Part shown: positions 3,640 to 64,000 of the stretch, in pieces
How positions within the stretch are numbered: the stretch's first letter is position 1
How the letters are laid out: each line of letters starts with the position of its first letter
From: Lineus longissimus
Taxonomy: Eukaryota; Nemertea; Pilidiophora; Heteronemertea; Lineidae
Direction: 5' to 3'
Assembly (NCBI RefSeq): GCF_910592395.1
Contig: NC_088308.1
Location: 10,371,001-10,435,000, forward strand
Length of the DNA stretch: 64,000 nucleotides
The notes under the pieces: model-generated
Seen by the model: the letters and a program-made list of their open reading frames with translations, nothing else
Told to the model about the DNA's origin: nothing
Database searches by the model: none
Position numbers and translations under genes: made by a program

Positions 3640-4259
3640 GTACCACCTTCACAAAAAAGAAAGGTGAAGATTTTATATTGATCAATATTTTCATGCCAAA
3701 ACGAAATCCTTTAACTTACTTCATAACTTGTTTGTTCATATCATTTCTCTTCTATTATGAGGACAGTCAAGTGCCATCTAACGAGGATTGAAGATCCTTC
3801 CACTTGTAGCTCTACAAATAAACCGGTGGAACCTATCTTACTGCAGCATGACGGCAATGTTACATCCATACCACCCCCAATGATGCCAAGCGAACATTTG
3901 ATGGTAGAATCCACCTGCATGTATCAACGACTGTGTAAACAAACATCACATACTGCTTCCGATGTTGTGTGCATACCGATGCAATGTAACCTTACCAAAC
4001 TATATAGACAGTTAAGCGACATAAAGTTTATTTTGCGGGTGAAATTTCGTTTATGAATGAAGGGACGTTTGTCGTAGATATGTTACAATTGAAGCATTTG
4101 GTGTCCTAAACTATTTTATGAAATAGTTGAATTACGGTAAAGTGATGCTGTCAATACAGCTTCCTCCTGTTGTCGTTTTGCAACAACAGGCAGGTTTTAC
4201 AACCCAAACGAACGCCGAAGAACTGAGAATGATTGCCTGTGGTGTAAACATAAAGTCAT
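3640..4259. repeat. Array-unit intergenic block
   Basis: Repeated at about 12955-13570, 25205-25800 and 37560-38165, upstream of the minus-strand genes. The recurring landmark is the stretch around AAACCGGTGGAACC. A 99-codon plus-strand frame at 3757-4056 is not conserved in the other copies. No RNA gene or coding signal seen. Confidence 0.6.
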
Positions 4260-5872
4260 TAGATGAACATTATTCACTGACTTCATACCTTGATGTATTT
4301 AAGCCTGTAACTGAACACGGGCTACTCAAACTCATTAGTGACATGAAACCAATACAGTGTGCATTAGACCCACTCCCAACATCTTTGCTTAGGAAGTGCC
4401 TACCAGGAGACATTATGCGCCTGATTTGCAAGATAGTCAATTCCTCATTGGAAAGTGGCATGGTGCCAAGCTCTTTCAAACGAGCTATTCTTAATCCCTT
4501 GATTAAGAAGCCATCCTTAGATGCTGACACACTCAAAAACTACAGGCCTGTCTCTAACCTGTCCTTCCTTTCAAAGGTTTTGGAGAGGGTGGTTTGCAAT
4601 CAGTTATCAAGCCATATTGCTGAAAACGGTGCTCTTGACAAGTTTCAATCTGCTTACAAACCACTTCACAGTGTTGAAACGGCACTATTGCGAGTACACA
4701 ATGACATAATTCATGCACTTGATGAAAAGAAGTGTGTACTCCTTGTATTACTCGATATGAGCGCCGCATTTGACACTGTGGACCATTCCAGACTACTTCA
4801 GAGACTTGCTGCTATGGGTGTTACTGGCACAGCACTGGCATGGGTTTCGTCTTATCTTGATAACAGATCACAAGAGGTATGCATTGACGGCAAATTGTCA
4901 AGACCTAGTCCTATCAAGTTCGGTGTTCCCCAGGGTTCTATACTGGGACCAGTACTTTTTACTGTCTACACTACCCCAGTTGGTGGAATCATCCGTAAGC
5001 ATGCCATTATGTACCACTTATATGCTGATGACAGTCAATTGTATGTGGCCTTCACTATAACTGAGATTAGTACCACCTGCTCCAAGATCTCTAATGCTGT
5101 CCACGATTTAAATCTCTGGTTGGTCGACAACTTTCTTAGCTGTAATGGCGACAAGACCGAGATTCTGCTAATCTGTTCCCGCAGGTTCAGCAGCACTATT
5201 ATTCTCCCCGCCATCCGTATCATTGATGCAAATGTATATTCTTCTGTTTCTGCAAGAGATTTGGGTGTGATCTTGGACCGTGATTTCAATTTCAAAGAAC
5301 ACATTAACACATGTGTACGGGCCACCAATTTTCACATTCGTAACATCGGGAAAATCAGAAAATATCTAACTCCAAATACCACCAGGTTATATGTCCAGGC
5401 TTTTGTAATATCTCGCCTGGATTTCTGTAATTCCCTTTTCCTTGGTTGTCCCAATTCAACAATTATACCCCTACAGAAGGTACAAAATTCTGCCGCTCGC
5501 CTAATTACCAAGACCAAGAAACGATCTTCCATTTCCCCAGTACTCAGGTCTCTACATTGGCTTCCTGTGCAACAGCACATCAAGTACAAGGTTTTCCTTC
5601 TTACTTACAAGTGTCTTCACCAACTTGCTCCCCAATACCTTTCAGAACTTCTCTCCGTTCATACCGTTTCTCGAACTCTGCGCTCTTCATCGGCCGTTCT
5701 TCTGTCTATCCCAAAGACCAATGTCATGTCAGTCGGTGGTAGAGCATTTTCAATTGGAGCCCCTCAGCTGTGGAACAAACTTCCTTCAACTGTTAGGAAC
5801 TGCAGCTCTCTGTTATCTTTCAAGGGACAACTCAAACATTTGCTTTTTAAAGAGGCCTATCAAGCGCTTTGA
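4260..5872 (+). CDS. LINE reverse transcriptase (5'-truncated ORF2)
   Basis: Uninterrupted frame to a TGA at 5870-5872. Visible reverse transcriptase motifs, in order, are a LKNYRPVSNLSFLSK region, LLDMSAAFDTVDH (first catalytic aspartate), GVPQGSILGP, and YADDSQLY (catalytic YADD). The C-terminal part has the PLQKVQNSAARLI and LHWLPVQ patches usual in CR1/L2/jockey-group elements. The frame can be read back to 4127, but the part before 4260 is host DNA, so the upstream ATG is accidental. The upstream endonuclease is lost. An open frame of over 530 codons suggests recent insertion. A truncated copy is not expected to mobilise itself. Confidence 0.85.
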
Positions 5873-8987: not shown

Positions 8988-10850
8988 TTAGATGTAAATT
9001 TTCGCTTTCAATGAATGACCTTTCCTGAATTTGTATTTCTTCGGCCAAAGTATCAGCCTATTCTTTTCGTCGACGAAGCAGAGAAATGCAGCTTGGTCAA
9101 CAACAGTGGGGATGAACCGAACTTTGGCTTTGATGGGAAATGCTAAAGCTGATGACTTGTCCCTGCACGAGTCCTCTTGGAACAGAAACAACTTTTGAAT
9201 TCTGAGTTTGTCGCCTGATTCTCGATAGCAATCGCCGCAAGTGTACTGCCAAGTAACGCCAATAATACTAGTTCCAAAAATCCAGGCAAAATTAGCTGTT
9301 GTCAATCCATTCTCTTCAAGTTGAATCATTCGCATCGTATTGTACATGTATTTTCTTTCCGTTATGGTTATTTTGAAAGGTTTGAATGTAAACTCGAATA
9401 GGTTTCCTTCAGAGTCAAACTGAGGATTACTAAGTAAGATGGGAAACGTTGCTAAAAAACCTGTTTCATACTTTGCTTCTCCGAGAGATTTAAAAAAATT
9501 CAGTTTCAGGGCAATACCAAGATTTCTGATTCTGAACAATTTCAAAGAAGTGACAAATTTCTTTAAACCAAGGAGATATGTTAGTGCAAAGACGACTATA
9601 TTGCTATTAACTGATAACCGAAGATATCGAAATGTTGAATTACCGGGGCCACGACTACTCCTGAAGTTGTTATACGGTAGCAGCAATTGTTGGCGGTTGC
9701 GTCCATCTAAACTAAATGCAAATGCTCGGAGAACACTTTTCTGCCACCACAGTGCGCCATCCTGGCAAATACCGATAACCCCGTCCTCATATTCACCAGC
9801 AATATCAACGAGATTATTTATGAAGAAATTATGCTTTAATGTATATGGCGATTTAGCCTTTCCTTTTGAAAATACATAAACATTGAAAGTTGACGTCACT
9901 ACGTGTCTGGTAGCAGCTACACCTACAAAGCACTTCAGCTTTAAGTGGTAGTGCCACTTGGAATTCCAGACTGGAAATTGTCCTTTGATACTTGGACTGT
10001 AACTGTGCTGGTATTTCTGGAGTTACAAAGTACTGTAAATATATAGTTTGTTGTCAATCTACAATAAATTAAGGTTTAGGAAATGAATGATAAGCAATAA
10101 TACCTGCACATCATCTAGCACGAGGTACCGAATTCTGAAAACAAGGTATTTTAACCAAATGGCTATCGATCCTATTGCCCGGGTGTTGCTTGGTTTTTGT
10201 CACAGAATATAATGCCTAAAATGGCTGGCTAGTTTATTAGTGCTTGATAAGCTGATTAAAAAATGGCGTCTTTATCCCATCCAAAACATCCGTGTACCCA
10301 CTATCACGCTCTAGCATTTGATTTCGACAAGTAGGAATATGTCTGAAATGAATGGGCGGCTTTTTACTGTAGTATGATTGTTCTTCTTTTGGTTCGCCAG
10401 TTCTGAACGTGTGTGCTGCTTTTCCAATTTTGTTTCATCTCTTTGACAGTAGAAAAACGCGTTATTCGTTATTTTCATTGGGCACAAGTCCAGGCCGGAG
10501 TAAAATCATATGACATTGTTGTTCTTTGGTTTCGAAAATGTAGTAGCCAAATTTGTAAATTTAGATATCCTGAAACGAAAAAGCGGTATTACCTGTATCA
10601 CCCAATGCCGGTATTTTAAACCAGTTTTCCTCCAGCTACAATTCCATGTTGCTTTGTTTGATGGGAAAACCCAGTGGCAGCCATGGCCTATGATGGAGAA
10701 TGCCTGGCACTCAAGAGCAATTGCGCATGTTAACCCGCACTGGAGGACAGAATCAGCCCGCTGGATCCTGGATTTCGGTTTATCAACGTATCTGCTGTAC
10801 GTCAGTACGAAAATTATTACTCGTACAAGCGCAGTTACACTGCCAACCAT
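8988..10850 (-). CDS. Secreted PAN/apple-domain tandem gene, copy B (intact)
   Basis: Complete two-exon model, 428 residues. Exon 1 is 10593-10850 (258 bp); exon 2 is 8988-10016 (1029 bp), ending in TAA. The donor is CAG|GTAATACC, the acceptor CCAG|AAATACC, and the intron is phase 0 and 576 bp. Residues 1-19 form a hydrophobic signal-peptide-like start. Cys38, 42, 48, 58 and 71 give a PAN/apple-like pattern. Residues 87-428 are an unrecognised, beta-rich-looking domain with conserved cysteines (LKCFVG, GICQDG, CGDCYRE, DSCRDK, FLCFVDE) and no clear membrane anchor. A secreted role in binding or recognition is inference. The start is chosen at the ATG before VGSVTAL because in-frame sequence further upstream has no ATG. 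Module Z and an exon-2 pseudogene follow downstream. Confidence 0.78.
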
Positions 10851-31593: not shown

Positions 31594-34500
31594 TTAGATG
31601 TAAATTTTCACTTTCAATGTATGACCTTTCCTGAATTTGTATTTCTTCGGCCAAAGTATCAGCCTATTCTTTTCGTCTACAAAGCAGAAAAATGCAGCTT
31701 GGCCAACGACGGTAGGGATGAACCGAATTTTGGCTTTGATGGGAAATGCTAAAGCTGATGACTTGTCCCTGCACGAATCCGATTGGAACATATACAACTT
31801 TTGAATTCTGTGTTTTTCGCCTGATTCTCGATAGCAATTACCGCAATACTGCGAAGCAACGCCGAAAATACTGGTTCCTAATATTCTGGCAAAACTAATT
31901 GTTCTTAATATATTCTCCTCAAGTTGAATCGTTCGCATCGTATTGTACATGTATTTTCTTTCCGTTACGGTTATTTTGAAAGGTTTGAATGTAAACTCGA
32001 ATAGGTTTCCTTCAGAGTCAAACTGAGGATTACTAAGCGAGATGGGAAATAACGATGATAACAGGACTGTTGTATACTTTGTTTCGCCGAGAGATTTTAA
32101 GAAATTAAGTTTCAGGACAATACCAAGGTTTCTGATACTGAACAAGCTCAAAGACGTGACAAGCGTCTTTAAACCAAGGAGATAGGTCAGTGCAAAGACG
32201 ACTACATTGCTATTAACTGTAAACCGAAGATATCGAAATGTTGAATTACCGGGGCCACGACTACTCCTGAAGTTGTTATACGGTAGCAACAATTTTTGGC
32301 GGTTGCGTCCATCTAAACTAAATGCAACTGCGCGAAGGTCAGTATTCTGCCACCACAGTGTGCCATCCTGGCAAATACCGATAACCCCGTCCTCATATTC
32401 ACCAGCAATATCAACGAGATTATTTATGAAGAAATTATGCTTTAATGTATATGGCGATTTATCCTTTACTTGTGAAAATACATAAACATTGAAAGTTGAC
32501 GTCACTACCTGTCTGGTAGCAGCTACACCCACAAAGCACTTCAGCTTTAAGTGGTAGTGCCACTTGGAATTCCAGACTGGAAATTGTCCTTTGATACTTG
32601 GACTGTAACTGTGCTGGTATTTCTGGAGTTACAAAGTACTGTGAATACATATTTTGATGTCCGTCTGCAATAAATTCAGGTTTAGGATATGAATGATAAG
32701 CAATAATAAATGCACATTATCTAGCATGAGGTACCGAATTCTGAAAACAAGGTATTTTAACAAATTATTATCGATACTATTGGCTGGGTGTTGCTTGGTT
32801 TTTGTCACAGAATGGCAAGCCTAAAATTGCTGCCTAGTTTATTAGTGCTTGATAAGCAGATAAAGAAATGGCGTCTCTATCCCATCCAAAACATCCGTGT
32901 ACCAACTATCACGCCCAAGAACTGCATCGGATTTCGAACTATGACAAATAGGAATATATCTGCTTTGTTTTAAAGGCATGGACGGCTTTTTACAGCAGTG
33001 TGTTTGTTCTTCTTCTGGTTCACCAGTAAACTATTTTTCTGAACGTGTGTGCTGCTTTTCCAAGTTTGTTTAATATCTTTAACACGGGTTTATTCGTTAT
33101 TTTCATTGCACACAACTTCTGGCACGAAAGACATTTTCCGCCAGGTGGGTAAACGCCGAGATTCGAATTCACGTGACGCTATTATTACGACGTAGCGTCA
33201 TTTCCAATATAGTCGCAGTAGCGGGCAAGGAGGATACCGCGGTGACGTCACATCACGTGATCACGACCCATATTACTGATGGCTATGGCCAATCAGATTC
33301 AGTCTGAACACATCTCCACGTCTCACTGTCTGGTGCGCTGCTGTACACAAAAACACCAATAGACATAAAATATTGCAATACCTAGTATGGATTCTTCCTG
33401 TGTAAAATAAAATGTACAGAGCAGATTAACTTCCACGAATAAAAAAGACGTTGGCGTGGCCAAAGTGCGGAAATAATGTCTCCGCTAAAATACACTACGA
33501 AATACACTAGGCAATGCACTACGCGATACACGGTAGAGATGCAGTTGAGTTTGTTATTGTTTTGACTTAGAAGCCGCCCATATGATAATACATTCATGTA
33601 TTCATGAAGTATGAACTCATTTCTGTCCCATACAACTCTAAGAACAGTCAATTTCTCTTTAAATCATCACCGAAACCGCGATATCCGCAGGAAGATTTCG
33701 TTCTAGTGTCCGAAAATGCATGATCTTACAGGGGCGCTAACTCGACAAATAGAGGGGATCTATGGGGATCTATGCGTGTTTTAGGTCCTACAGGTCTCGA
33801 ACTTGTAAAAGCTGTAAACATGCCTCCAAATCCCATTATGATAATGAAGAGATTGCCCCATATCTGGGAGACTGTTTTGAAACCATCGCTAATTTTGGAA
33901 GATCGGTGCCCGGCTATTTGGTTTTAAAAACCCTATTTTCCCCCATCAAAACAGCACTTTTCATTATTCAAATGATAACTTATTGTCTGAAGACTTATTT
34001 CATAGCAGAAAGTACTAATAACTCTGATTTGATGCGAAAAATCTAACTTTATTTGATGAATTTATTTTCCCTTGGCCGTGGATCGAGTTTGTTTACAATA
34101 TGCAGCGCCATCTTGGAAAAGCCATGACGTCACCGTGGTATCCTCCTTGAGTAGCGGGGTTAACAAGCGCCATTAGCGTTCGATCGAAAAAAAATCAATA
34201 ACTACACCAAGTCGTCACAGGGTAGATCCATGGCTCCAGGAAGTGCCTTACAAGTGCATCGTTCCACAATTTTGGACAAGAAAGCTTTATAAGTGTTTAA
34301 TTTCGTAAAACTGTATAGCATCTGGGATGTCGATTTCCGAGCTCTGGGTTTTGAGGTGTGGTTACAAATTGTGCCTAAAGTTGGTGCATCTTCCGAATCT
34401 TTGAGCATCTTTCCAAAACCTTACTCCTACCTGGGGACGGGGTAGCCCGTGGGAGGATCCCGTAGGAGGGCTTAAAGGCTCATGTAAGCCCAAAGAACAT

Positions 34501-38873: not shown

Positions 38874-39186
38874 TTAAAGGCCATAACTCCAGGTATTTTG
38901 CCATTTTCTGCTGTAAGACGATTTCAAAAGTGTACCTAACATTTTATACAATACAGAAAACCCAATGCAATTAGCTCCATCCATTTTAAAGATATAGCCA
39001 TTTATGTGTTTGACAACTTGATTACCTAATCAGGCTAGCAACTGGCTTGTTAGAGCCAGGCGGCGGGTTCAGCAAAATTTGTGATGTAGATCAGGCTATT
39101 GCCCTACTTGGGAGGACAAATATCAATGAATGCTCTTAAAATTGATATATGAAGTCTGTTTTTCATTGACATTCGATATACCCTAA

Positions 39187-40128
39187 TATGTAAAGTCAAG
39201 GACTTGGTGAGCCCCCTTTAGGTCGGGGGAGCACCCCCGAACCCCCCTACGATAGCGTAACGTTTTTACCCAGTACAATGGAGGGGAAACCCCCCCCCCA
39301 AACCCCCCATGTTGGGACCATCCATAGTTCCTTCCGACACATTTTTGTTTTGGTAATGTAATACATTGTGATTGTCCTTATTCACGGGAATCGGGCGTTT
39401 CCAGTGATATACGACACAAATGGGTTGTCCGCATGCATTCACTTTGGAAACGCATTTTAAAATAGATGTTACGTCCTGTTAATGGGGCACGTCATCATCG
39501 CGTACATTTGGGAAAAACTCCCTAACGAGACCGGAGCAGACGGCTGAAAGTAGTTTAATTATTGGCCGCTAGGATGCAGTATGTCGCTCACCCGAATTTT
39601 TCACGCAACTTTTGTTAAATAGAGCTAGTTCTAGTTTGTGATTCATTTTGATACTTCAGATTTGGGTAGTAGACCAAAATAACTTAGTCGTCAGTGTGGT
39701 TTTAAGCAGGAAAAACGTATTTGTTTTTCTTAAAGCGCCTTTTTTGGACGGGTGTGCGCGATTGTTTTGTTTATGTCACGTGACCTCGACCATGTCGACA
39801 CAAAATTGAAATAAACCACCCTTTTCTGTCATTATTTAGGACGGATATTTCTCTAATAAAAATATTAATATAATTGGCCAATTTCTTAGGCATATGTAGC
39901 GAATTCCCATGAAGATTTAAATTAGATGTTCTCGTAACCTGTTACAACTGGTCTGATTTATTAATTCAGCGCTACAACTGGTCTGATTTATTAATTCAGC
40001 GCCATTTTGAAAAACCAAAAAAAATTGTTTGTAGGATATACAATAGTTACTCTCTTTATTTCTCATCATTCATTATATACTCCCGCACACACGTGTATCT
40101 TAAGAGCCCCTCCTAAAGGGGGGCTTAA
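39187..40128 (+). mobile_element. GC-hairpin element X, copy 1 of a tandem dimer
   Basis: A 942-bp unit beginning TATGTAAAGTCAAGGACTTG and ending with the hairpin AGCCCCTCCTAAAGGGGGGCT plus TAA. A second hairpin, TCGGGGG-agca-CCCCCGA, lies near the start. AGCCCCC(C)TTTAGG near the left end is the inverse of CCTAAAGGGGGGCT at the right end, but offset by about 23 bp. A 27-bp tandem repeat (ACAACTGGTCTGATTTATTA) lies near 39950-40005. No ORF of note. A head-to-tail dimer with an asymmetric inverted repeat is reminiscent of rolling-circle (Helentron-like) elements. Confidence 0.55.
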
Positions 40129-40267
40129 TATGTAAAGTCAAGGACTTGGTGAGCCCCCCTTTAGGTCGGGGGATCACCCCCGAACCCCCCTACGATAGCG
40201 TAACGTTTTTACCCAGTACAATGGAGGGGAAACCCCCCCCCCCCAAACCCCCAATGTTGGGACCAAT

Positions 40268-40668
40268 TGTGGCAACTTACCCACATTGGTTTCAGGCGCT
40301 GCAACTTGGTGATGCACAACTTGGTGGCAGAACTTGTCTTCCTTCTAGGTATATACTCAGGGTCTTCAACGTTTGTGTCTTACTTGTCTCGTGTCTGCGT
40401 TTTGTCTGCCCTCTCCATTGGAAGGGGCTCTGTACATGACATAACAGCAGGCCAGAGCCAACCCAACACACAATAGCTTCCATATATAACAAAAGCCAAG
40501 AAGGGTTAGATTTCCCTCACAAGATCTGGGCACAATAACCAGGGTTGAGACTCAACTTATATGTGATATAAGACTAGGCCCCTATTACTGATAAACTATA
40601 AACTAATACTCTACGTTCAAAACTATAAGATCTCAATACTCTAAATGTTGCATTACGAGACTCCCACA
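40268..40668 (-). repeat. 3' LTR of the gypsy element
   Basis: 401 bp, same length and ends as the 5' LTR. By eye it differs at four positions, corresponding to CCATTGG/CCCTTGG, GGCTCTG/GGCTATG, TAGGCCC/TACGCCC and ACTGATA/ACTAATA. Confidence 0.93.
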
Positions 40669-40688
40669 TTCCCCTCCCACCTAAAAAC
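40669..40688 (-). other. Polypurine tract
   Basis: On the minus strand AGGTGGGAGGGGAA lies directly before the 3' LTR, the expected primer for plus-strand DNA synthesis. Confidence 0.8.
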
Positions 40689-42095
40689 AGTGTCCCAACC
40701 TCTTAGCAACTGAACACAATATATTACAAGACATGCAAAATACAGAATATACATAATACGACAACTTAAGGTGGTCCAACGCAGTGAACCAAGCAAAAGG
40801 TGTGCACCCCTCAGTAACTGGTATACAAATAACACGGCCGAACAGGAAGTTTGTCACAGAGTAGCTTAACACTACAGGAGGTAACATAGATTAGTTGGCA
40901 TGTAAATGCACTGCACCATTATGCACTAGGTTAAGAAGTGTACTCTTTTGATGTACGAATAAACATACATATATATATAATAAACCTGGTCATCAACAAA
41001 ACTGAGCTGGTAATAACCTACTCAAAGTTATGAAATTGAACAAGCTAACACACACCACACTAACAAGAGATGACCCAGAAAACGAAAGTGACAAATTATC
41101 CTCTTCCTGTAAGGTGCAATTAACACATAGGTAAATACTAAACAACTTAATCGAAGTAGCATAACCAAGAACTGTGACGAAAATAAATAATCAGTGATCA
41201 GCTCACACTGTCACAGCTAAGGCTAATGCAACGATCACGTCACAACACCCAACAATCACATACCATGCCACAAGCGCAACCAAAATAATAATTACGTTAC
41301 CACGTACGCCTACTGCAATAAACTAGTACTGAAATGGAACAAGTAGCAAAAGCTGGTAATAACCTACCTTCGCCACCAGTTCCCCAAACCAACAATACAT
41401 AGAGAAACAACACTGCAGGACAGCGGCCAGCTCTCGGAAAAGCCAGGACTGGTAATAACCTATCCACGACTCACCAATTTCTGACCAGGACACGCAGGAC
41501 TGTAAACCAGTACGTTTCCAACTAAAGCCATTTACAAAGGCAGCAGCGTCCAGTGACAACATAATAATCATGTGATCAGTAGCCATTACATATTGTTTTA
41601 CCAAGTATAATAAAATTAGAAGCTTACTTCCCGATAGCAACTAAAGAATAAGAAGCAAAAGTAATTGAACTGACACAAACTGATACCAACTAAAAATAAA
41701 CAAACGCCGAACTCAAGCACTCAAACCACAACCCGTACCAACAACAAGTCTTGTTTTCGTTGTACATAAGCCTCATATATTTCCAAACCGTTTTGAATAT
41801 TTACAGGTAACATGGTTAACGAATTCCCAATATCAGAAGATACACAAATTTCATATGATACCTGGGAGAAGTAATGACTCCTCAACCACATGACACAGAG
41901 ATACACGAACTACATATTTGTAATATATCATATGTACGAGGAAGAAGTAAGAACTCCTCAACCTCGAACACAGAGAGTCCTTAACTGTGCAGTCCTTCGT
42001 CCACAGAGAATCCAAATACAAGAACAACATAGTTGTAATATATCATATGTACGAGGAAGAAGTAAGAACTCCTCAACCCCGAACACAGAGAGTCC
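40689..42095 (-). other. 3' non-coding region of the gypsy element
   Basis: About 1.4 kb without an envelope-like ORF. It holds three copies of CTGGTAATAACCTA(C/T) at about 41007, 41353 and 41449. Immediately after pol are two near-identical direct repeats of about 62 bp (about 41919-41980 and 42031-42095, containing ATATGTACGAGGAAGAAGTA), with a third degenerate copy near 41849. One 105-codon frame (41640-41323) spans two of the short repeats and has no recognised motif. Confidence 0.65.
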
Positions 42096-44312
42096 TTAAA
42101 CTATGTAGTCCTTCATCCACGCCGGATCCCGCTGTCGCCGGCCACCTTTTGTAAACCGTTCTTCCTTGAAAAGGTTTGCCAACTCCTCTCCCTCCAAGAA
42201 ATCATAAGGAAGATCTCTCTCTTCAGTGGCTACCGGTACTAGTTCTGCAGGCATTCCGTCAGCAACATCTGCTTCATTCGTCGGCTCAAGTTGTTCCCTA
42301 GGCTCCGGTACATTTACCGTACCTGCCCCAGGTACCTTAGGATCTGCTAGGTTTACAGTATCCACCCCATCGGCAGGACCCTGATCTCGATCACTAACCC
42401 TTCCATCTTCATCCTTGAAGAACTCATGCCGTGCCCTTTTCAACCAAATTGGCAGAGATCTGTCGTGACACAGTTTCAGCTTGTCATGATGTACATATAC
42501 TTCGCGCTTTGGATCCCGTAACTTGTACACTGGCGGACGGGCTCCTACAACCAGAAATGGGCCACGCCACGGAGGACACAATTTCCTGCTTATTCCAGTC
42601 TTCACCGCCTCGCTCAACTTGTACACCACGTCTCCAGGATCAAACTTTCCTTCCTTGGCCCGGACATCGTAGTCCTTTTTCTGGCGAGCCTGTGAGGCTT
42701 GTAGGTAAGATCGAGCAAACTCATGTGTCCTTGAAAGATGTTTCTCCAATTCTTGTACCCATTTGTTTGGCAGCTTCCTTTCTGGCGGAATCGTACCCAG
42801 CATCACGTCTAGTGGGAGAAGGACCTCTCCTCCGAGCATCATCCGATTGGGAGTGAAGTGAGTCTGTTTATGTACAGTAGCATGCAGCGCCATGGTTAGA
42901 TACGATAACTCTTCATCCCATGTGGTTACGTTATCATCTATGAAACACCGGATCATTTGTAGGAGTACCCTGTTGTAACGCTCCACCTGGCCGTTCCCAG
43001 AAGGGTGGTATGGCGTTGTACGGGTTTTTGTTACTTCCAACAACTTGCCGAGTTCCTGAAACAACCGGCTTTCAAACTGGGCCCCTTGATCGGAATGGAT
43101 ACTTAAAGGGCATCCAAAGGTGGTAATAAACTTTTTCAAGAACCCTTCAGCTACAAGTGCCGCTGTCTGTTCCGGCAATGGCTCACACTCCACCCACTTG
43201 GTGAACTGATCGATCATGCTTAATATATAAACATTGTTGCGATCGCTGGGGGTAAATGGGCCCAAAATGTCAATGTGGACTCGTTCCATGGGATATCCTG
43301 CATGATGTTTTCTCAGTGAGGCTTTCCTCTGGTTACTCCTTTTATATCTATTACAAATGGCACAAGACTGAACATAATCATCTATCTCCATGTTCATCTT
43401 ATACCAGTAGAAGGACTGTCGGACTCTGCTCCGAGTCTTATCCCTCCCCAGATGTCCAGCCACACGTGAGTCATGGCACCAGGAAAGGACTTCCGCACGC
43501 AGACTACCTGGCACCACCAACAACTTCCTTGAAACAGGGTCCTGAATCCAGGCGTGATATAATACACCATCATGGATCTCAAGCAGATTCTTCTTCAACC
43601 ACAGCGCCTTGACCTCGGGCGAAGTTAGATACAATTCTGCTGACTCGGGTCTGTCCTTTTCCAACCAGCTTATGATTTTTCCCAACGCTAGATCTTTTAA
43701 TTGCATTGCTCTCAAATCCTCAGAGGAGTAACGTTCAAGCCAGTTGACCTCAGAGGGCCTTGATGTGTCTGTATAAAGTTCTGAATCAGAAGGTATATTC
43801 TCTTCTTCTGCTGGGCAGCGATCCTCACTTTGATTGGCATCTTGAACCTTTGGTACAGGACCTTCTAATACAGAGTTTTGCTGATTCACTGGCACGTCCA
43901 TCTCATTGTCTTGTGACGAGTCCTCCACCAAATGCACCATAACCGACCTCACAGTTAACGGAACGACATCATCCACATCTTGGGTGAACCTATCCCATTC
44001 CTTATGTGCCTTAGAGCAGTACCTACAGCCTCCACATGGTAAGCTTTCAAGATCCACACCAGCTCGATAGCAATCACAAGGTTCCTGTTCGCTTGGAATT
44101 CGTGACAACGCATCAGCATTGGAGTGCAATCGGCCAGAGCGGTGAACTATCGTCATGTTATACTGCTGAAGTTCTTCTAACCAGCGAGCAAGCTGTCCCT
44201 GCGGCTCCTTGATTCTCATCAGCCATGCCAAACTACTGTGGTCGGTACGTAGTATGAAAGGACGGCCTATCAGATAATGCCTAAACTGCCGGGTAAACTT
44301 TATTACCGCCAA
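42096..44312 (-). CDS. pol: Gypsy RNase H C-terminus and integrase
   Basis: A 738-codon frame in the same phase as the reverse transcriptase, separated by stops at 44517-44519 and 44346-44348. Residues 1-75 are the end of RNase H (FILRTDHSSLAW; HSNADALSR). The integrase zinc finger has H280, H287, C317 and C320. The catalytic core has D348, D408 and E444 (spacing 59 and 35), with HSDQGAQF and YHPSGNGQVERYN around the last two. A GPF-type C-terminal module is near 584-600. The 60 or more residues after it are acidic and unassigned. True translation starts upstream in pol; the first residue given is only the first possible start. Confidence 0.92.
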   Translation of the reverse strand: MAVIKFTRQFRHYLIGRPFILRTDHSSLAWLMRIKEPQGQLARWLEELQQYNMTIVHRSGRLHSNADALSRIPSEQEPCDCYRAGVDLESLPCGGCRYCSKAHKEWDRFTQDVDDVVPLTVRSVMVHLVEDSSQDNEMDVPVNQQNSVLEGPVPKVQDANQSEDRCPAEEENIPSDSELYTDTSRPSEVNWLERYSSEDLRAMQLKDLALGKIISWLEKDRPESAELYLTSPEVKALWLKKNLLEIHDGVLYHAWIQDPVSRKLLVVPGSLRAEVLSWCHDSRVAGHLGRDKTRSRVRQSFYWYKMNMEIDDYVQSCAICNRYKRSNQRKASLRKHHAGYPMERVHIDILGPFTPSDRNNVYILSMIDQFTKWVECEPLPEQTAALVAEGFLKKFITTFGCPLSIHSDQGAQFESRLFQELGKLLEVTKTRTTPYHPSGNGQVERYNRVLLQMIRCFIDDNVTTWDEELSYLTMALHATVHKQTHFTPNRMMLGGEVLLPLDVMLGTIPPERKLPNKWVQELEKHLSRTHEFARSYLQASQARQKKDYDVRAKEGKFDPGDVVYKLSEAVKTGISRKLCPPWRGPFLVVGARPPVYKLRDPKREVYVHHDKLKLCHDRSLPIWLKRARHEFFKDEDGRVSDRDQGPADGVDTVNLADPKVPGAGTVNVPEPREQLEPTNEADVADGMPAELVPVATEERDLPYDFLEGEELANLFKEERFTKGGRRQRDPAWMKDYIV

Positions 44313-44516
44313 CAGTTCTCTCCTGGTTGTACAATAGTTACGCTGCTATTTTGTCAGTACATTGCTAGCATAGGCCACTGTTCGCTCTACCCCATCCTGT
44401 ACCTGCGAGAGTTCAGCTCCAATTGAGTTGCTAGATGCATCTGTATCAAGGACAAAATTTCCTTGTGGAAGAGGGTACGCCAAGCAGGGTGCCGATGAAA
44501 GGATCTCCTTGAGCTC

Positions 44517-45974
44517 TTAGAAAGCCTGTTGCTTCTCTTCGGTCCACCCGAAATCCCCCGTCTTCTTGCTGTCGGCAATCAGATTCCGGAAGGGGAGCAC
44601 TCTTTCTTCAAAGTGGGGGACGAAATTCCGATGATAGCTAGCGTACCCAACTATCGTGGCTAACTCTTTCGCGCTCTTTGGTACCGGCCAAGACCTAATC
44701 ACGTCCATCTTCTTGGGGCTGATCTTGACACCCTCTGAGCTGACGTTCTTCCCCAGGAAATCGACTTCTCGCTGGAACAGCGTACACTTGCTAGGTTTAA
44801 GCTTGACGTTGTACTTCCTCAGGCGGGCAAAGACTTCTCGGAGGTTCGTCATATGGTCCTCAAACGTCTTTCCTAGAACTATAATGTCATCTAGGTAGGC
44901 CAGTACTGTCTTCCATGTCAAACCCCGCAGGATCAGCTCCATCGCTCTTTGAAACGTGGCCGGTGCATTACAAAGGCCGAAGGGTAGACGAATATGTTCG
45001 AACGTACCGAACTTTGTCCCAAACGCTGTCTTATGTCTATCCTCCTTCTTAACTTTGAGGTTGTAGTATCCTGAAGCGAGGTCTAGAGTGCTAAAGAACT
45101 CACTTCCTGCTAATGTATCCAGGCACAAATCCACAGACGGAATTGGAAATGAGTCTTTCTTGGTGCAGGAGTTGAGGACTCTGTAATCCAGGCAGTATCT
45201 CACTTTTCCATCCCGTTTCCGCACTAGGACTGGTGGTGATGACCAGGCTGAATTCGCCGGAGCGATAATCTCATGATCGAGAAGTTTGGTTAGATGTCCT
45301 TCTTCCTCATTTTCAAATCCTAACGGAGTCTTCCGCATCCTCTGCTTAATTGGCCGCTGATCTCCCGTATCGATTGAGTGTTCGATCTCTTCAAAACATC
45401 CAATATCTAAATCATGTTTTGAGAAAATGTCTTGGAAATCAAACAGGAGTTTTCCCACCTGCTGCTTCTGATGTGGCGTCAATTCGGTACAGGAACGTTG
45501 ATATAAACCCTTCAAATGTTCCGGCAGTGTCTCATCCCAATCTGTTGTTTCTTCCTCTGGTTTATCTCCAGGCACCGACTCTGTTCGATTGATAGAAGCA
45601 CCATCACTTCCCCCTGGCGACAGCTGTTCAAGATATGGGTCATCCTCTATAATTTCATCAGCCTCCGAGACGTCCCCTAGTAAAGTTCCCTTTGGTATGT
45701 TGATACTCCGATCTGTGAGATTGATAACATTTACAGAAAATTTCGGCTTGTTTTTAGTTAGCACTGAGGGAAACCGGAGCCCTTCGATGTTGTTCTTGGG
45801 TTGGAAAACCACGCACGTGTTCTTGTGGACTGGATGGATAACATGTGCCTCGATGAAGGTAACGGAGTTGGGCGGTACATTTATCTTCCTTGAAGTTTGA
45901 ACATTATTAACAAAGGCCTTCCCTCTTGGGTTCTTCTTGATCGGAGCCGGCTTTTCCTTTGGTTCTGGCTCCAC
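44517..45974 (-). CDS. pol: Gypsy reverse transcriptase ORF
   Basis: A 485-residue frame. After an N-terminal linker (1-190), the reverse transcriptase core runs from about 200: SPPVLVRKRDG (247-256), the FSTLDLASGYY stretch (295-304) with the first catalytic Asp, LPFGLCNAPATFQ (330-342), and YLDD (360-363) catalytic aspartates. The connection domain ends near 485 at a TAA (44517-44519) just at the start of the RNase H region, which looks like a mutation rather than a natural end. The frame relative to the protease needs a +1 shift or reflects an indel. Confidence 0.93.
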   Translation of the reverse strand: MEPEPKEKPAPIKKNPRGKAFVNNVQTSRKINVPPNSVTFIEAHVIHPVHKNTCVVFQPKNNIEGLRFPSVLTKNKPKFSVNVINLTDRSINIPKGTLLGDVSEADEIIEDDPYLEQLSPGGSDGASINRTESVPGDKPEEETTDWDETLPEHLKGLYQRSCTELTPHQKQQVGKLLFDFQDIFSKHDLDIGCFEEIEHSIDTGDQRPIKQRMRKTPLGFENEEEGHLTKLLDHEIIAPANSAWSSPPVLVRKRDGKVRYCLDYRVLNSCTKKDSFPIPSVDLCLDTLAGSEFFSTLDLASGYYNLKVKKEDRHKTAFGTKFGTFEHIRLPFGLCNAPATFQRAMELILRGLTWKTVLAYLDDIIVLGKTFEDHMTNLREVFARLRKYNVKLKPSKCTLFQREVDFLGKNVSSEGVKISPKKMDVIRSWPVPKSAKELATIVGYASYHRNFVPHFEERVLPFRNLIADSKKTGDFGWTEEKQQAF

Positions 45975-46611
45975 ATCCGTTTCTGACTATTACATCCCTT
46001 TTTCTTGGATTTCCTCTGACAATGGACGCAGCAATTTTGATTCCCTCGAGACATATGTTGCTGTTCCTAACGTCCACCAGGGCTCCATGTCGTTCCAAGA
46101 AATCAAATCCTAGCAAAAGGTCGTCCCTGATCGGAGCTACGCAGAAGTCCAGAGAGAATGTCTCTCCCGCTATCACGATGGACTGTCCCTTGCATACTCG
46201 AGCTTCCATTGGTTTATCATTTCCTGCTCCTCTCAGCTCAGCCTTCTCATTCAGTGTTGGTGGTTCCTGTAGCGACTCGTAAAAATCTTTACTTATCACG
46301 GTAACCATCGCTCCCAGATCTACAAGGGCTGTGACATCTTTCCCTAACAGCTGGCAGGGCAACACCATGGACGCTCCTTGGAAGGAATCTTGGCACAACG
46401 CAATTGGAATCCATGATGAGTCAGGAGAAGTACCCACAGTGCGTACATTACTAACGGTCGGTTCCATCATTGCAGTGGAGACATCTTCAGAAGTAGAGTT
46501 TGCTACCCCATCATCTCTGGAATTAAGGCTAGACTCTGTAACATCCATCCCAGTCAACTCGAGTCTCCGAGTATAGGAAGCATCGTCTACCGGAAAGAAT
46601 TGTGGTAACAA
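45907..46611 (-). CDS. Gypsy aspartic protease (altered active site)
   Basis: A retropepsin-like segment that would cleave the polyprotein. The flap/body pattern LPCQLLGKDVTALVDLGAMVTV (84-105) and the later LLLGFDFLERHGALVD segment fit gypsy proteases. The active-site triplet reads Asp-Leu-Gly (98-100) where the family has Asp-Ser/Thr-Gly. The codon is CTG, so more than one base change from common Ser/Thr codons may be needed. The frame continues from the macro domain across one stop. Its end overlaps the next ORF (45907-45974) in a different frame. Catalysis is doubtful. Confidence 0.82.
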   Translation of the reverse strand: MLPQFFPVDDASYTRRLELTGMDVTESSLNSRDDGVANSTSEDVSTAMMEPTVSNVRTVGTSPDSSWIPIALCQDSFQGASMVLPCQLLGKDVTALVDLGAMVTVISKDFYESLQEPPTLNEKAELRGAGNDKPMEARVCKGQSIVIAGETFSLDFCVAPIRDDLLLGFDFLERHGALVDVRNSNICLEGIKIAASIVRGNPRKRDVIVRNGCGARTKGKAGSDQEEPKREGLC

Positions 46612-46626
46612 CTTGGAATATAGCTT

Positions 46627-47265
46627 TTAATCCTCTTGTGAAAACACACAGAAGATAATCCGCTGTATTTCGTTTCCATGTAGATCTAGAAACCCTCTAA
46701 CCGCTTCCAAAGCAACTTCTGCAGCCTCTTCACTGGGGTACCCATATAATCCAGTCGAGATGGAAGAAAAGGCGAGTGTTTTTAACCCATTCGCTCTCAT
46801 GACCTCCAGACACCTGAAGTAACAACTCCTTAGCTGAGCTTCATGTTTGCCTTTTGGACCGACTGTATGAATAACATAGGAGGCAGGTAGCTTGTATCCT
46901 CCCGTTATCTTGGCATGTCCGCAGTGGCAACCACCCAGTTTCCCTGTTTCCTCAACAAGTTGATGGCCCGCTGCTGATTGGATTGCCCCATCAACTCCTC
47001 CACCTCCTAAGAGAGATTCGTTAGCTGCATTTACGACAGCATCCACCTCCAGGCATGTAATGTCACCTTGCCAAACTGAAACCTTCTCATTAAGACTGGG
47101 ACTAGGTTGGTACCTGCGTTTACTCGTCTTGTCAAACTTCCCTTCTTCTGCCAATGTAGACCATGTTGGGATGTCCCCTAAACCCACATAATTTCCTCGG
47201 CATTTGTAGAAATTCCGCTTCTCTTCTACAGGCATCTTAAGGAACTCCTCCTTGCTCGGGTACAT
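46627..47265 (-). CDS. MACROD-type macro domain inside the gypsy element
   Basis: A 212-residue macro domain, the fold that binds ADP-ribose and, in the MACROD group, removes mono-ADP-ribose from proteins. Visible: a MACROD-like N-terminal helix region (FYKCRGNYVGLGDIPTW, 19-35), GDIT (67-70), VVNAANESLLGGGGVDGAI (77-95, nucleotide-binding and catalytic loop), HCGHAKITGGYKLP (114-127), VIHTVGP (131-137) and ISTGLYGYP (169-177, phosphate-binding loop). All main binding loops look intact. The frame is -1 to gag, open from just before the gag stop, and shares its frame with the protease, separated by one TAA (46627-46629). It could be made by frameshifting from gag or from its own ATG. Capture of a host MACROD gene is inferred. 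Confidence 0.93.
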   Translation of the reverse strand: MYPSKEEFLKMPVEEKRNFYKCRGNYVGLGDIPTWSTLAEEGKFDKTSKRRYQPSPSLNEKVSVWQGDITCLEVDAVVNAANESLLGGGGVDGAIQSAAGHQLVEETGKLGGCHCGHAKITGGYKLPASYVIHTVGPKGKHEAQLRSCYFRCLEVMRANGLKTLAFSSISTGLYGYPSEEAAEVALEAVRGFLDLHGNEIQRIIFCVFSQED

Positions 47266-47348
47266 GGAAATTCCAGTGGAATTTGGCGACTCTGATCGTG
47301 TATTATTTATGCGGTCTCTAATTCCAAACGGGGCGATAACCTGACCGC

Positions 47349-51703
<4,355 letters not shown>

Positions 51704-51721
51704 TCCCATCTTCGTCGCCAA
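51704..51721 (-). other. Primer-binding-like site
   Basis: On the minus strand, TGGCGACGAAGATGGG begins two bases after the LTR end. TGG complementary to a tRNA CCA end at this spot is the standard place for reverse-transcription priming. The tRNA species was not identified. Confidence 0.55.
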
Positions 51722-51723
51722 AA

Positions 51724-52124
51724 TGTGGCAACTTACCCACATTGGTTTCAGGCGCTGCAACTTGGTGATGCACAACTTGGTGGCAGAACTTGTCTTCCTT
51801 CTAGGTATATACTCAGGGTCTTCAACGTTTGTGTCTTACTTGTCTCGTGTCTGCGTTTTGTCTGCCCTCTCCCTTGGAAGGGGCTATGTACATGACATAA
51901 CAGCAGGCCAGAGCCAACCCAACACACAATAGCTTCCATATATAACAAAAGCCAAGAAGGGTTAGATTTCCCTCACAAGATCTGGGCACAATAACCAGGG
52001 TTGAGACTCAACTTATATGTGATATAAGACTACGCCCCTATTACTAATAAACTATAAACTAATACTCTACGTTCAAAACTATAAGATCTCAATACTCTAA
52101 ATGTTGCATTACGAGACTCCCACA
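51724..52124 (-). repeat. 5' LTR of the gypsy element
   Basis: 401 bp. On the element strand it runs TGTGGGAGTC...GTTGCCACA, so it has TG...CA ends. It should hold the element promoter and polyadenylation signal. It differs from the other LTR at four positions by eye. Confidence 0.93.
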
Positions 52125-53204
52125 CAATCATAGTTCCTTCCGACACATTTTTGTTTTGGTAATGTAATACATTGTGATTGTCCTTATTCACGGGAATCGG
52201 GCGTTTTCAGTGATATACGACACTTAAATGGCTTGTCCTCATGCATTCACGATGGAAACGCATTTTAAAATAGATGTTACGTCCTGTTAATGGGGCACGT
52301 CATCATCGCGTACATTTGGGAAAAACTCCCTAACGAGACCGGAGCGGACTGCTGAAAGCAGTTTAATTATTGGCCGCTAGGTTTCAGAACGTCGCTCACC
52401 CGAATTTTTCACGCAACTTTTGCTAAATAGAGCTAGTTCTAGTTTGTAATTCATTTTGATACTTCAGATTTGGGTAGTAGACTAAAATAACTTAGTCGTC
52501 AGTGTGATTTTAAGCAGGAAAAACGTATTTGTTTTTCTTAAAGTGCCTTTTTTGGACGGGTGTGCGCGATTGTTTTGTTTATGTCACGTGACCTCGACCA
52601 TGTCGACACAAAATTGAAATAAACCACCCTTTTCTGTCATTATTCAGGACGGATATTTCTCTAATAAAAATATTAATATAATTGGCCAATTTCTTAGGCA
52701 TATGTAGCGAATTCCCATGAAGACTTAAATTAGATGTTCTCGTAACCTGTTACAACTGGTCTGATTTATAATTCAGCGCTACAACTGGTCTGATTTATTT
52801 ATTCAGCGCCATTTTGAAAAACCAAAAAAATTGTTTGTTGGATATACAATAGTTACTCTCTTTATTTCTCTTCATTCATTATATACTCCCGCACACACGT
52901 GTATCTTAAGAGCCCCTCCTAAGAGGGGGGCTTAATAAGGTAAGGTAATACAGAAAAATTTATACCATTATAATAAGAAATCAAACATCAGTCTGATCTA
53001 TGTCAGTAAACTTGCCGCCTGACTACACTTAGAAACCTTACCAAGGCTGTTACATAACATGTAAACAAAACAGTTAGTCTTGCTTTATCTCTGGACTGGG
53101 TGCTTCAATTTTGATCAAACTTGATTTAATGCGGAGCTTTAAGTCTACTCTTTGAGGATCTGTACATGTCATGCAATCATAAAAGCAGGAGTCGTGGCCT
53201 TTAA

Positions 53205-61701: not shown

Positions 61702-62730
61702 TTAGATGTAAATTTTCGCTTTCAATGTATGACCTTTCCTATATTTGTATTTCTTCGGCCAAAGGATCAGTCTATTCTTTTCGTCGACAAAGCAGAAAAA
61801 TGCAGCTTGGCCAACAACGGTGGAGATGTACCGAATTTTGGCTTTGATGGGAAATGCTAAAGCTGATGACTTGTCCCTGCACGAATTCGCTTGAAACATA
61901 AACAAATTTTGAATTCTGTGTTTGTCGCCTGATTCTCGATAGCAATCGCCACAATACTGCGATGTAACGCCAATAATACTAGTTCCTAATATCCTGGCAA
62001 AAGTAATTCTTCTTAATCTATTCTCCTCAAGTTGAATCGTTCGCATCGTATTGTACATGTATTTTCTTTCCGTTATGGTTATTTTGAAAGGTTTGAATGT
62101 AAACTCGAATAGGTTTCCTTCAGAGTCAAACTGAGGATTACTAAGCGTGACGGGAAACAACGATGATAACAGACCTGTTGCATACTTTGCTTCTCCGAGA
62201 GATTTTAAGAAATTAAGTTTCAGGGCAATACCAAGATTTCTGATACTGAACAAGTTCAAAGAAGTGACAAACGTCTTTAAACCAAGGAGATAGGTCAGTG
62301 CAAAGACGACTATATTGCTATTAACTGTAAACCGAAGATATCGAAATGTTGAATTACCGGGGCCACGACTGCTCCTGAAGTTGTTATACGGTAGCAACAA
62401 TTTTTGGCGGTTGCGTCCATCTAAACTAAATGCAAATGCTCGTAAGCCACTATCCTGCCACCACAGTGCGCCATCCTGGCAAATACCGATTACCCCGTTC
62501 TCATATTCTCCAGCAATATCAACGATATTATTTATGAAGAAATTATGCTTTAATGTATATGGCGATTTATCTTGTACTTGTGAAAATACATAAATATTGA
62601 AAGTTGACGTCACTACGTGTCTGGTAGCAGCTACGCCCACAAAGCACTTCAGCTTTAAGTGATAGTGCCACCTGGAATTCCAGACTGGAAATTGTCCTTT
62701 GATACTTGGACTATAACTGTTCTTGTATTT
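61702..62730 (-). CDS. PAN/apple-domain tandem gene, copy F (exon 2 only)
   Basis: A complete, uninterrupted 1029-bp exon 2. The acceptor is CCAG|AAATAC at 62730/62731 and the stop TAA at 61702-61704. It encodes the same 342-residue domain as copies B and E, with the conserved cysteines (LKCFVG, GICQDG, YCGDCYRE, NSCRDK, FFCFVDE) and the C-terminal KIYI. It resembles copy E most closely (SQYCG instead of WQYTCG). Exon 1 is expected beyond the right edge, since the intron of copy E is 3.25 kb. The frame is intact, so a working gene is likely. Confidence 0.75.
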   Translation of the reverse strand, partial: KYKNSYSPSIKGQFPVWNSRWHYHLKLKCFVGVAATRHVVTSTFNIYVFSQVQDKSPYTLKHNFFINNIVDIAGEYENGVIGICQDGALWWQDSGLRAFAFSLDGRNRQKLLLPYNNFRSSRGPGNSTFRYLRFTVNSNIVVFALTYLLGLKTFVTSLNLFSIRNLGIALKLNFLKSLGEAKYATGLLSSLFPVTLSNPQFDSEGNLFEFTFKPFKITITERKYMYNTMRTIQLEENRLRRITFARILGTSIIGVTSQYCGDCYRESGDKHRIQNLFMFQANSCRDKSSALAFPIKAKIRYISTVVGQAAFFCFVDEKNRLILWPKKYKYRKGHTLKAKIYI

Positions 62731-64000
62731 CTGGAGTTACGAAGTACTTGAAATATATAGTTTGTTGTCCATATGCAATAAATTAAGGTTTAGGAAATGA
62801 ATGATAAGCAATAATAGCTGCACATTATCTCGCACGAGGTACCGAATTCTGAAAACAAGGTATTTTAACAAATTATTATCGATACTATTGGCTGGGTGTT
62901 GCTTGGTTTTTGTTAGAGAATGTAAAAGCCTAAAATTACTGCCTAGTTTAGTAGTGCTTGATAAGCAGGTAAAGAAATGGCGTCTTTATCCCATCCAAAA
63001 CATCCGTGTACCCACACGCCCTTGAACAGCATCGGATTTCACACTATGACAAATAGGAAGTTCGTCTTAAAGGAATGGACGGCTTTTTGCTGCAGTGTGT
63101 TTGTTCTTCTTCTGGTTCACCAGTAAACTATTTTTCTGAACGTATGTGCTGCTTTTCCAAGTTTATTTAATATAATCTTTGACAGTAAAAAAACGCGTTA
63201 TTCGTTATTTTCATCGCGCACAAGTCCTGGCGCGAATGACCTTTCCGCCAGGGGAGTGCACGCCGAGATGCGAGTTCACGTCACCTCGCTAGTAATACGA
63301 CGTAGCGTCATTTCCATAGTCGCAGTAGCGGGGTATTAAAACAAGCGCCTTCAGCGTTCCGTCGAAAAAATCACTATCTACACCAAGACGTCACAGGGTA
63401 GATTCATGGCTCCAGGAAGCGCCTTACAAGTGCATCGAGAAAGTTTTACAAGTGTTTAATTTGGTAAATCTATATGTACAGAGTGGCTCAATAAAAATGT
63501 TACACTTACAAAATGGTTAATATCTTTTATTATTTTTATTATCTTCAAGTACATTGTTTAATGCCAAAATCATAAGAGATATTAACCATTTTATAAGTGT
63601 AACATTTTTATTGAGCCACTCTGTACAGTATTTCGGGATGGCGATTTCAGAGCTCTGGGTTTTGAAGTGTGGTTGCAAATTGTGCCTATTAGTTGGTGCA
63701 TCTTTCGAATCTTTGTGCATCTTTCCAAAACCTTACTCTTTCCTGGGGACGTGGCAGCCCGTGGGAGGACAAGGTGGGGGGGGGGGGGGGGTACAAAGGT
63801 TCATGTAAGCACTAGGAGCATCAGATTGCTTGCGCACCAAGCCTAACTAGCGGTTCTCTAAGTAAGAACTCTTACTGGTGTTGTAGTCAAAGACTGCCAA
63901 GTACTCGCTAAATGTGTACATACGCAGATCAGGTAATGTTTATATTCTGCCATTTTGACATCTGGCTCTCATTTCTCACACACATTTAATAGTGTGTAGC
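62731..64000 (-). other. Intron of copy F (to window edge)
   Basis: Collinear with the intron of copy E (32623 onward) but without the Mutator-like element. Contains the MITE at 63479-63623, a poly-G run at 63776-63791 and the start of the same LTR-like repeat seen at 34420. The window ends inside it. Confidence 0.6.
63479..63623. mobile_element. Near-perfect palindromic TA-flanked MITE
   Basis: 145 bp. Arms of over 50 bp start CAGAGTGGCTCAATAAAAAT and are nearly exact inverses around a short AT-rich centre; TA on both sides (63477-63478 and 63624-63625). The intron of copy E lacks it. The TA target points to Tc1/mariner. Confidence 0.85.

What the first reader, a model, noticed from the sequence alone, without database searches (positions are those of the whole stretch)
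46627..47265. Retrotransposon carrying a MACROD-type de-ADP-ribosylating domain between gag and protease
An intact-looking macro domain with all main ADP-ribose loops lies inside a complete, young Ty3/gypsy element. It occupies the place where some retroviruses carry dUTPase. It also keeps a MACROD-like N-terminal extension, so it looks like a captured host gene rather than a chance insertion. Many RNA viruses use macro domains to reverse host antiviral ADP-ribosylation. By analogy, this element may use its own to resist PARP-based control or to process ADP-ribosylated particle proteins. I know of no such Ty3/gypsy lineage but cannot search.
Basis: partly seen in the sequence, partly recalled or inferred. 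Interest (0 to 1): 0.93.

Follow-up and report, generated by a model that had tools for sequence, protein, structure and literature searches.

The report
Retrotransposon lineage carrying a macrodomain
A virus-like jumping gene in an unnamed, probably animal, genome carries a domain derived from a cellular enzyme that strips ADP-ribose tags; related jumping-gene proteins from other sources carry it next to the same protease, so it looks like a kept tool rather than an accident, although this particular copy is damaged.

Summary
On the minus strand, 40268-52124 is an 11,857-bp Ty3/gypsy element: 401-bp TG..CA LTRs (4 mismatches), 4-bp target duplication, gag, pol, no env-sized ORF. A MACROD-type macrodomain (Pfam E 2e-37; closest solved structures human MACROD2/1) lies between gag and protease. 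It is not intact: an in-frame stop falls before the last MACROD-like stretch, the histidine of the proposed His/Asp pair is Gln, and pol has two more stops and a frame break.

The domain is not peculiar to this copy. A length-shifted search found P0160, one ORF with macro-protease-RT-RNase H (13-member cluster; Asn, Asp and His kept), and P0164 (macro-protease, 10 members); their gag was not seen. The window's RT groups with P0160's (93/94, five rows). P0167 and P0215 carry macro after the integrase, a second architecture. Single capture is neither shown nor rejected. Vertebrate ERVs with macrodomains are known; eight paper searches gave no report for Ty3/gypsy. Most likely it is a Pol-linked, particle-packaged de-ADP-ribosylating enzyme, comparable to retroviral dUTPase; packaging and activity are inferred. 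The host-genome search did not complete, so other copies were not seen.

The parts
51724..52124 (-). 5' LTR, 401 bp, TGTGGGAG...GTTGCCACA
40268..40668 (-). 3' LTR, 401 bp, 4 mismatches to the 5' LTR; preceded by a purine-rich tract AGGTGGGAGGGGAA
52125..52128 (.). target-site duplication ATTG (minus-strand reading)
40264..40267 (.). target-site duplication ATTG (minus-strand reading)
51703..51723 (-). putative primer-binding site region TTTTGGCGACGAAGATGGGAT (no tRNA matched to it here)
47349..50360 (-). gag ORF from first ATG (stop to stop 47349-50369, 1006 aa): Retrotrans_gag plus two CCHC zinc knuckles
   Evidence: homologues P0121, P0122
46627..47361 (-). macrodomain ORF, 244 aa, minus-1 frame relative to gag, 13-nt overlap with gag; MACROD N-terminal extension and macro fold; ends at an in-frame stop
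46582..46626 (-). remaining MACROD-like C-terminal tail (KLYSKLLPQFFPVDD), past the stop
45907..46626 (-). protease ORF, same frame as the macro ORF, gag-asp_proteas E 6.1e-08; active-site motif DLGA
44517..45986 (-). reverse transcriptase ORF (YLDD), in another frame than protease; ends at an in-frame stop
42096..44345 (-). RNase H end, H2C2 zinc finger and integrase core (D..D35E); preceded by an in-frame stop at 44346-44348

Best explanation
A lineage of Ty3/gypsy retrotransposons took up a cellular MACROD gene and keeps it at the start of its pol ORF, N-terminal to protease. SHOWN: position in the window; MACROD relationship; macro-then-protease order in two other polyproteins; a second architecture with macro after integrase; high conservation of columns that host MACRODs keep. 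INFERRED: the domain is made as part of a Gag-macro-Pro-Pol fusion by a minus-1 frameshift, is therefore packaged at Pol stoichiometry, is released or left linked by the protease, and removes ADP-ribose that host PARPs place on particle proteins or on RNA and cDNA ends during reverse transcription and integration, much as retroviral dUTPase protects reverse transcription from a host-dependent hazard. The window copy itself is a recent but defective member whose macrodomain has probably lost part of its activity.
For: Macro in frame with protease, frame -1 to gag. P0160: macro 214-321, protease 439-531, RT 809-968, RNase H in one ORF, 13-member cluster; P0164: macro 332-439, protease 537-631, 10 members. 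The window protease ORF and P0160 align collinearly from the MACROD tail into the protease, weakly (25% over 198 columns, E 0.001 for that one comparison). RT of window and P0160 group 93/94 among five rows. 46, 45 and 46 of 49 host-invariant columns kept in window, P0160, P0164, against 46, 46 and 43% of the other columns identical to the nearest of 52 hosts. Model pLDDT 89.4, best Foldseek hit MACROD2. MacroD-type enzymes cleave ADP-ribose from acidic residues and nucleic-acid ends, and PARP1-3 modify DNA ends (PMC7050489, passages).
Against: No activity data. In the window copy the His of the proposed His/Asp pair is Gln and the ORF stops before the end of the domain. I recognised no canonical slippery heptamer in the 13-nt overlap, and the downstream RNA folds no better than shuffles (z -0.31). 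No other copy from the same genome could be examined. Gag was not seen for P0160 or P0164, and the gag relatives P0121 and P0122 could not be linked to a macrodomain. P0236, probably a related element, has lost Asn residues of the pocket. The conservation comparison is confounded by host evolution before capture. P0160's RT is as close to P0167's (45.9%) as to the window's (46.9%).
Confidence: 0.55

Rival explanations
1. The domain is an ADP-ribose reader rather than an eraser: it tethers the particle or integration complex to ADP-ribosylated chromatin or proteins, as the chromodomain behind the integrase does for chromoviruses.
For: In P0167 and P0215 the domain sits behind the integrase. In the window copy the loops NAAN and GGGGVDG stay while the His of the proposed catalytic pair is lost.
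Against: P0160, P0164, P0167 and P0215 keep NAAN, the Asp and the His; in the window the domain is far from the integrase.
Confidence: 0.2
2. The domain was useful once and is decaying in the window's lineage; only other lineages still use it.
For: Stop before the end of the domain, His to Gln, PC to SS in the second loop, DLGA in protease, three stops and a frame break in all.
Against: 46 of 49 host-invariant columns remain; the lesions are spread over pol, as expected of one dead copy, not of selective loss of macro.
Confidence: 0.17
3. Small-molecule role: clearing ADP-ribose-1''-phosphate or O-acetyl-ADP-ribose, for example linked to tRNA metabolism and priming.
For: MacroD enzymes also act on O-acetyl-ADP-ribose (PMC7050489, passages).
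Against: A Pol-linked, low-stoichiometry enzyme is an odd place for a bulk metabolic role (inference).
Confidence: 0.06
4. Chance: a processed MACROD copy inserted into this one element.
For: The host genome's other copies were not seen.
Against: Macro-then-protease order in P0160 and P0164; no A-run of 7 or more in 46000-47420 and no repeat over 8 bp between the stretches compared on the two sides.
Confidence: 0.02

Closest known systems
Epsilon-like endogenous retroviruses of ray-finned fish with a macro domain ORF (Basta et al. 2009, seen only as cited in PMC4977317)
   Same: LTR retroelements that acquired a cellular macro domain
   Different: Retroviridae of vertebrates, an additional ORF according to the review; here a Ty3/gypsy element with the domain in frame with protease
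Gag of Rhinella marina endogenous retrovirus (A0A2U9K508, BFVD hit rank 9)
   Same: Macro-like fold in a retroelement polyprotein, by structure match (E 1.7e-11)
   Different: Annotated Gag of an amphibian ERV; 19% identity and a poor superposition (rmsd 22.3); not examined further
Betaretroviral dUTPase-protease ORF (recalled)
   Same: Captured host enzyme, same slot N-terminal to protease, reached by frameshift
   Different: Different enzyme; Retroviridae
Cellular MACROD1/MACROD2
   Same: N-terminal extension, macro fold, loops
   Different: Fused into a pol ORF; this copy lacks the His and the end of the domain
Macrodomains of corona-, toga- and hepeviruses (PMC7050489, passages)
   Same: Viral MacroD-type domain in a polyprotein, thought to counter PARPs
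   Different: Positive-strand RNA viruses; 17-25% identity in the named corona-, toro- and alphavirus rows among the 50 listed

Membership tests
Ty3/gypsy (Metaviridae) LTR retrotransposon | TG..CA LTRs and 4-6 bp TSD | tested here: met
   (TSD ATTG)
Ty3/gypsy (Metaviridae) LTR retrotransposon | Order gag-PR-RT-RH-IN | tested here: met
Ty3/gypsy (Metaviridae) LTR retrotransposon | RT closest to Ty3 RT | tested here: met
   Against solved structures only: Ty3 189-192 bits; next 'Peptidase A9/RT' and 'Pr125Pol' 111-122 (foamy virus, recalled), 'Enzymatic polyprotein' 115.5; best of the Gag-Pol/p80 rows 62 (gammaretroviral, recalled)
Ty3/gypsy (Metaviridae) LTR retrotransposon | tRNA-type primer-binding site | not tested
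   TTTTGGCGACGAAGATGGG seen after the LTR, not matched to a tRNA
MacroD-type macrodomain | Macro fold, with MACROD closest by sequence and structure | tested here: met
MacroD-type macrodomain | MACROD N-terminal extension | tested here: met
   alignment from residue 36; R49, Y52, W67 nearly invariant in 50 rows
MacroD-type macrodomain | Conserved Asn (Asn92 of MacroD2) and Asp (Asp102) | tested here: met
   residue roles from PMC7050489 passages
MacroD-type macrodomain | His of the proposed His/Asp pair | tested here: not met
   Gln in the window; His in P0160, P0164, P0236, P0167, P0215. That this His is the one of the pair rests on recall of MACROD1 numbering; PMC7050489 names the pair but not the His number
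MacroD-type macrodomain | Complete C-terminal end in the ORF | tested here: not met
   stop at 46627-46629; MACROD-like tail continues beyond
MacroD-type macrodomain | Mono-ADP-ribosyl hydrolase activity | not testable with these tools
   needs an assay
Macro-carrying vertebrate epsilon-like ERV | Retroviral RT | tested here: not met
   RT nearest Ty3 among solved structures
Macro-carrying vertebrate epsilon-like ERV | env gene | tested here: inconclusive
   longest minus-strand stretch without stop between integrase and 3' LTR is 105 aa; no env model was searched there

The most novel reading that the evidence does not exclude
Ty3/gypsy retrotransposons have at least two architectures that carry a MACROD-derived enzyme in Pol (before protease; after integrase), kept over deep divergence, which implies an ADP-ribosylation-based host barrier to LTR retrotransposition and a particle-borne counter-measure, possibly acting on ADP-ribosylated cDNA ends.
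Probability: 0.4. Interest if true: 0.88.

Novelty: new variant of a known kind. Interest (0 to 1): 0.72.

Why it matters
Viral macrodomains are a classic sign of PARP-virus conflict, known best from RNA viruses, also seen in some DNA viruses and a few vertebrate retroviruses. A macrodomain built into Ty3/gypsy Pol in several separate sources would suggest that retrotransposons too meet ADP-ribosylation as a barrier, and it points to a place (the particle, reverse transcription, integration) where this can be tested. The two positions in Pol give a natural contrast between an eraser and a tethering role.

Tried and rejected
Nested processed MACROD pseudogene: no A-run of 7 or more in 46000-47420, no repeat over 8 bp between the two stretches compared, macro-then-protease order also in P0160 and P0164. 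Chance similarity: E 2e-37. Programmed frameshift backed by RNA structure: the 113 nt from the overlap downstream fold no better than shuffles (72 of 200 at least as well). DNA of relatives: viral-contig scans with the window macro, P0121, P0160 and P0167 and one genome-contig scan with P0160 gave no confirmed relative.

Tree placement of the window macro: a quick tree of 127 rows and a careful tree of 58 rows leave it unresolved (the bootstrap of the latter had not settled). Holding it with P0160, P0164 and P0236 gave a likelihood 11.3 higher than the free search (p-AU 0.74), holding it with all five element macros 7.3 higher (p-AU 0.70). In a 32-row test with another model none of four trees was rejected (p-AU 0.22 to 0.65); the best held the five other element macros together and left the window free. 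A first IQ-TREE set timed out and is not used. Rows dropped: of 241 proteins (the window's own P0001 left out) 216 passed the coverage rule or were kept by hand, 126 remained after thinning at 72% identity; 17 named in the script were then left out (some long branches, others by hand) and the rest halved.

Papers: all ten searches used. Eight bore on macrodomains in retroelements (all but 48 and 53); of these 27, 28 and 58 were loose and their listings mostly unrelated. Basta et al. 2009 is not held. PMC9503650, a survey of viral proteomes, has 'retrotransposon' and 'retroelement' zero times; its one retrovirus passage is about 2H domains. PMC12440569 (Troyka) has no 'macro'.

Full report
The observation. 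On the minus strand the window holds an LTR element at 40268-52124 (11,857 bp). Its LTRs are 401 bp each, TG..CA, with 4 mismatches (Jukes-Cantor 0.010), flanked by ATTG on both sides. The insertion fell inside a 942-bp tandem repeat: repeat sequence lies at 39184-40130 and 40126-40265, then the element, then 52129-52937. Host flanks joined across the insertion match the neighbouring unit at 95% over 240 columns, so the element, macro included, is one insertion.

Contents. gag (1006 aa stop to stop; Retrotrans_gag E 9.1e-08, two CCHC knuckles), a 244-aa macro ORF (PF01661 E 2e-37), a protease ORF (E 6.1e-08), an RT ORF (E 5.2e-32) and an RNase H-integrase ORF (H2C2 E 1.4e-20, rve E 6e-15). The macro ORF is in the minus-1 frame relative to gag and overlaps it by 13 nt; the protease ORF continues in the macro frame. 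Between integrase and the 3' LTR the longest minus-strand stretch without a stop is 105 aa, so no env-sized ORF was seen.

What the domain is. The best solved relatives are MACROD2 (4iqy, E 5.3e-57) and MACROD1 (2x47, E 1.2e-56), aligned from residues 36 and 38, that is with the MACROD N-terminal extension. A model from a 50-row alignment has mean pLDDT 89.4; the first 15 Foldseek hits in the PDB are MACROD2 and MACROD1. In a search limited to proteins of about 134-427 aa, the 119 listed proteins other than the window's own are 43-57% identical over the aligned part, none carries a second Pfam domain, and those with names are MACROD-like or macro domain proteins, mostly of animals (120 of 7966 matches listed).

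What is broken. In-frame stops end the macro ORF (46627-46629) and the RT ORF (44517-44519) and precede the RNase H-integrase ORF (44346-44348); protease and RT are in different frames. The relative P0160 has macro through RNase H in a single ORF, so these look like lesions of this copy and not the family's plan. MACROD-like sequence runs on past the first stop (also a match of the protease ORF's first 48 residues to P0228, 40% over 52 columns, E 7e-04). Of 49 columns that are at least 95% conserved among 52 host-type MACRODs, the window keeps 46; one of the three lost is the His after GGGGVDG, now Gln. A review describes a histidine and an aspartate coordinating the 2''OH, once thought a catalytic dyad, with Asp102 not present in all MacroD enzymes (PMC7050489, passages); that this is that His rests on recall of MACROD1 mutants, and my paper search for it found nothing. 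So binding may persist while hydrolysis is doubtful for this copy.

Relatives. I add P0236 by eye: macro followed by a stretch resembling the start of the P0160 protease; two Asn of its pocket loop are Lys. The other 115 listed show no retroelement domain in that listing, so the great majority of hits are not elements. The search could not see proteins above about 1531 aa. Hosts of these relatives are unknown, P0160 and P0164 show no gag, and P0160 ends before an integrase.

Are they one lineage? RT identity of the window to P0160 is 46.9% (143 of 305), to P0167 36.5% (112 of 307); P0160 to P0167 is 45.9% (140 of 305). With yeast Ty3 as outgroup the window and P0160 group at 93/94 in a five-row tree, short of the starred level. 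The five other element macros form a starred clade (95/91), with the window outside but unresolved. Tests reject neither the window joining the upstream group or all elements, nor leaving it free. Same slot and grouping RT favour one capture for window, P0160 and P0164; the post-integrase position is a second event or a transfer. The evidence does not settle this.

Gag. Only two gag relatives were found: P0121 (32.6% over 1041 columns; it ends NGQGRN where the window ends NGNGRN) and P0122 (41% over 193 columns). Neither could be linked to a macrodomain.

Mechanism. Being in the protease frame behind gag, the domain would be made as a Gag-Pol-type fusion and packaged; that follows from retroelement biology and is inferred. 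I recognised no canonical slippery site and the RNA downstream does not fold unusually well. MacroD enzymes remove ADP-ribose from acidic residues and nucleic-acid ends; PARP1-3 modify DNA ends and PARP10, 11 and 15 RNA ends (PMC7050489, passages). A packaged eraser acting on particle proteins or on RNA and cDNA ends is therefore the best-supported account; a reader role is the main rival.

Precedent. A review states that fish epsilon-like sequences occasionally include additional ORFs for CNPase or macro domain proteins, citing Basta et al. 2009 (PMC4977317, passages). A toad ERV Gag matches the model's fold, loosely. In the eight paper searches that bore on it I saw no report of a macrodomain in Ty3/gypsy; this is limited to that open-access library, those terms and the listings shown. 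Hence 'new variant of a known kind'.

Limits. The host genome was never searched. The species is not known: that it is an animal is inference from the closest MACRODs and from the 29-Mb contig listed for the window's own protein. No DNA of the relatives was available, so selection could be judged only on proteins, and that comparison is confounded by host evolution before capture.

Noticed in passing
window 8988-10022, 31594-32628, 61702-62736 (minus strand): Three uninterrupted copies of a 344-aa ORF, plus fragments; the one copy scanned has no Pfam match; dN/dS by counting 0.236/0.273, 0.236/0.286 and 0.050/0.132.
   Followed up: partly
window 39184-40265 and 52129-52937: A 942-bp tandem repeat inside which the element inserted.
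   Followed up: partly
P0160, P0164, P0236: The stretch before macro holds repeated GQGP-like motifs, spaced 24 aa in P0164 and 50 aa in P0236; the gag relative P0121 ends NGQGRN. Meaning unknown.
   Followed up: partly
P0167, P0215: A second kind of Ty3/gypsy polyprotein with the macrodomain behind the integrase, 80% identical to each other.
   Followed up: partly
window 45907-46626: Protease active-site motif DLGA in place of DSGA of the relatives.
   Followed up: no
window 41901-42120: Local duplication of about 105 bp (92%) at the end of the integrase ORF.
   Followed up: no
window 4127-5872: 581-aa reverse transcriptase ORF (RVT_1 E 1.7e-32), non-LTR type by eye only.
   Followed up: no
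BFVD A0A0K1L687: Best viral structure match is ORF_067R of Scale drop disease virus, 45% identical over the aligned part.
   Followed up: no
P0123: A 657-aa protein with two near-identical macrodomains in tandem and no other Pfam domain listed.
   Followed up: no
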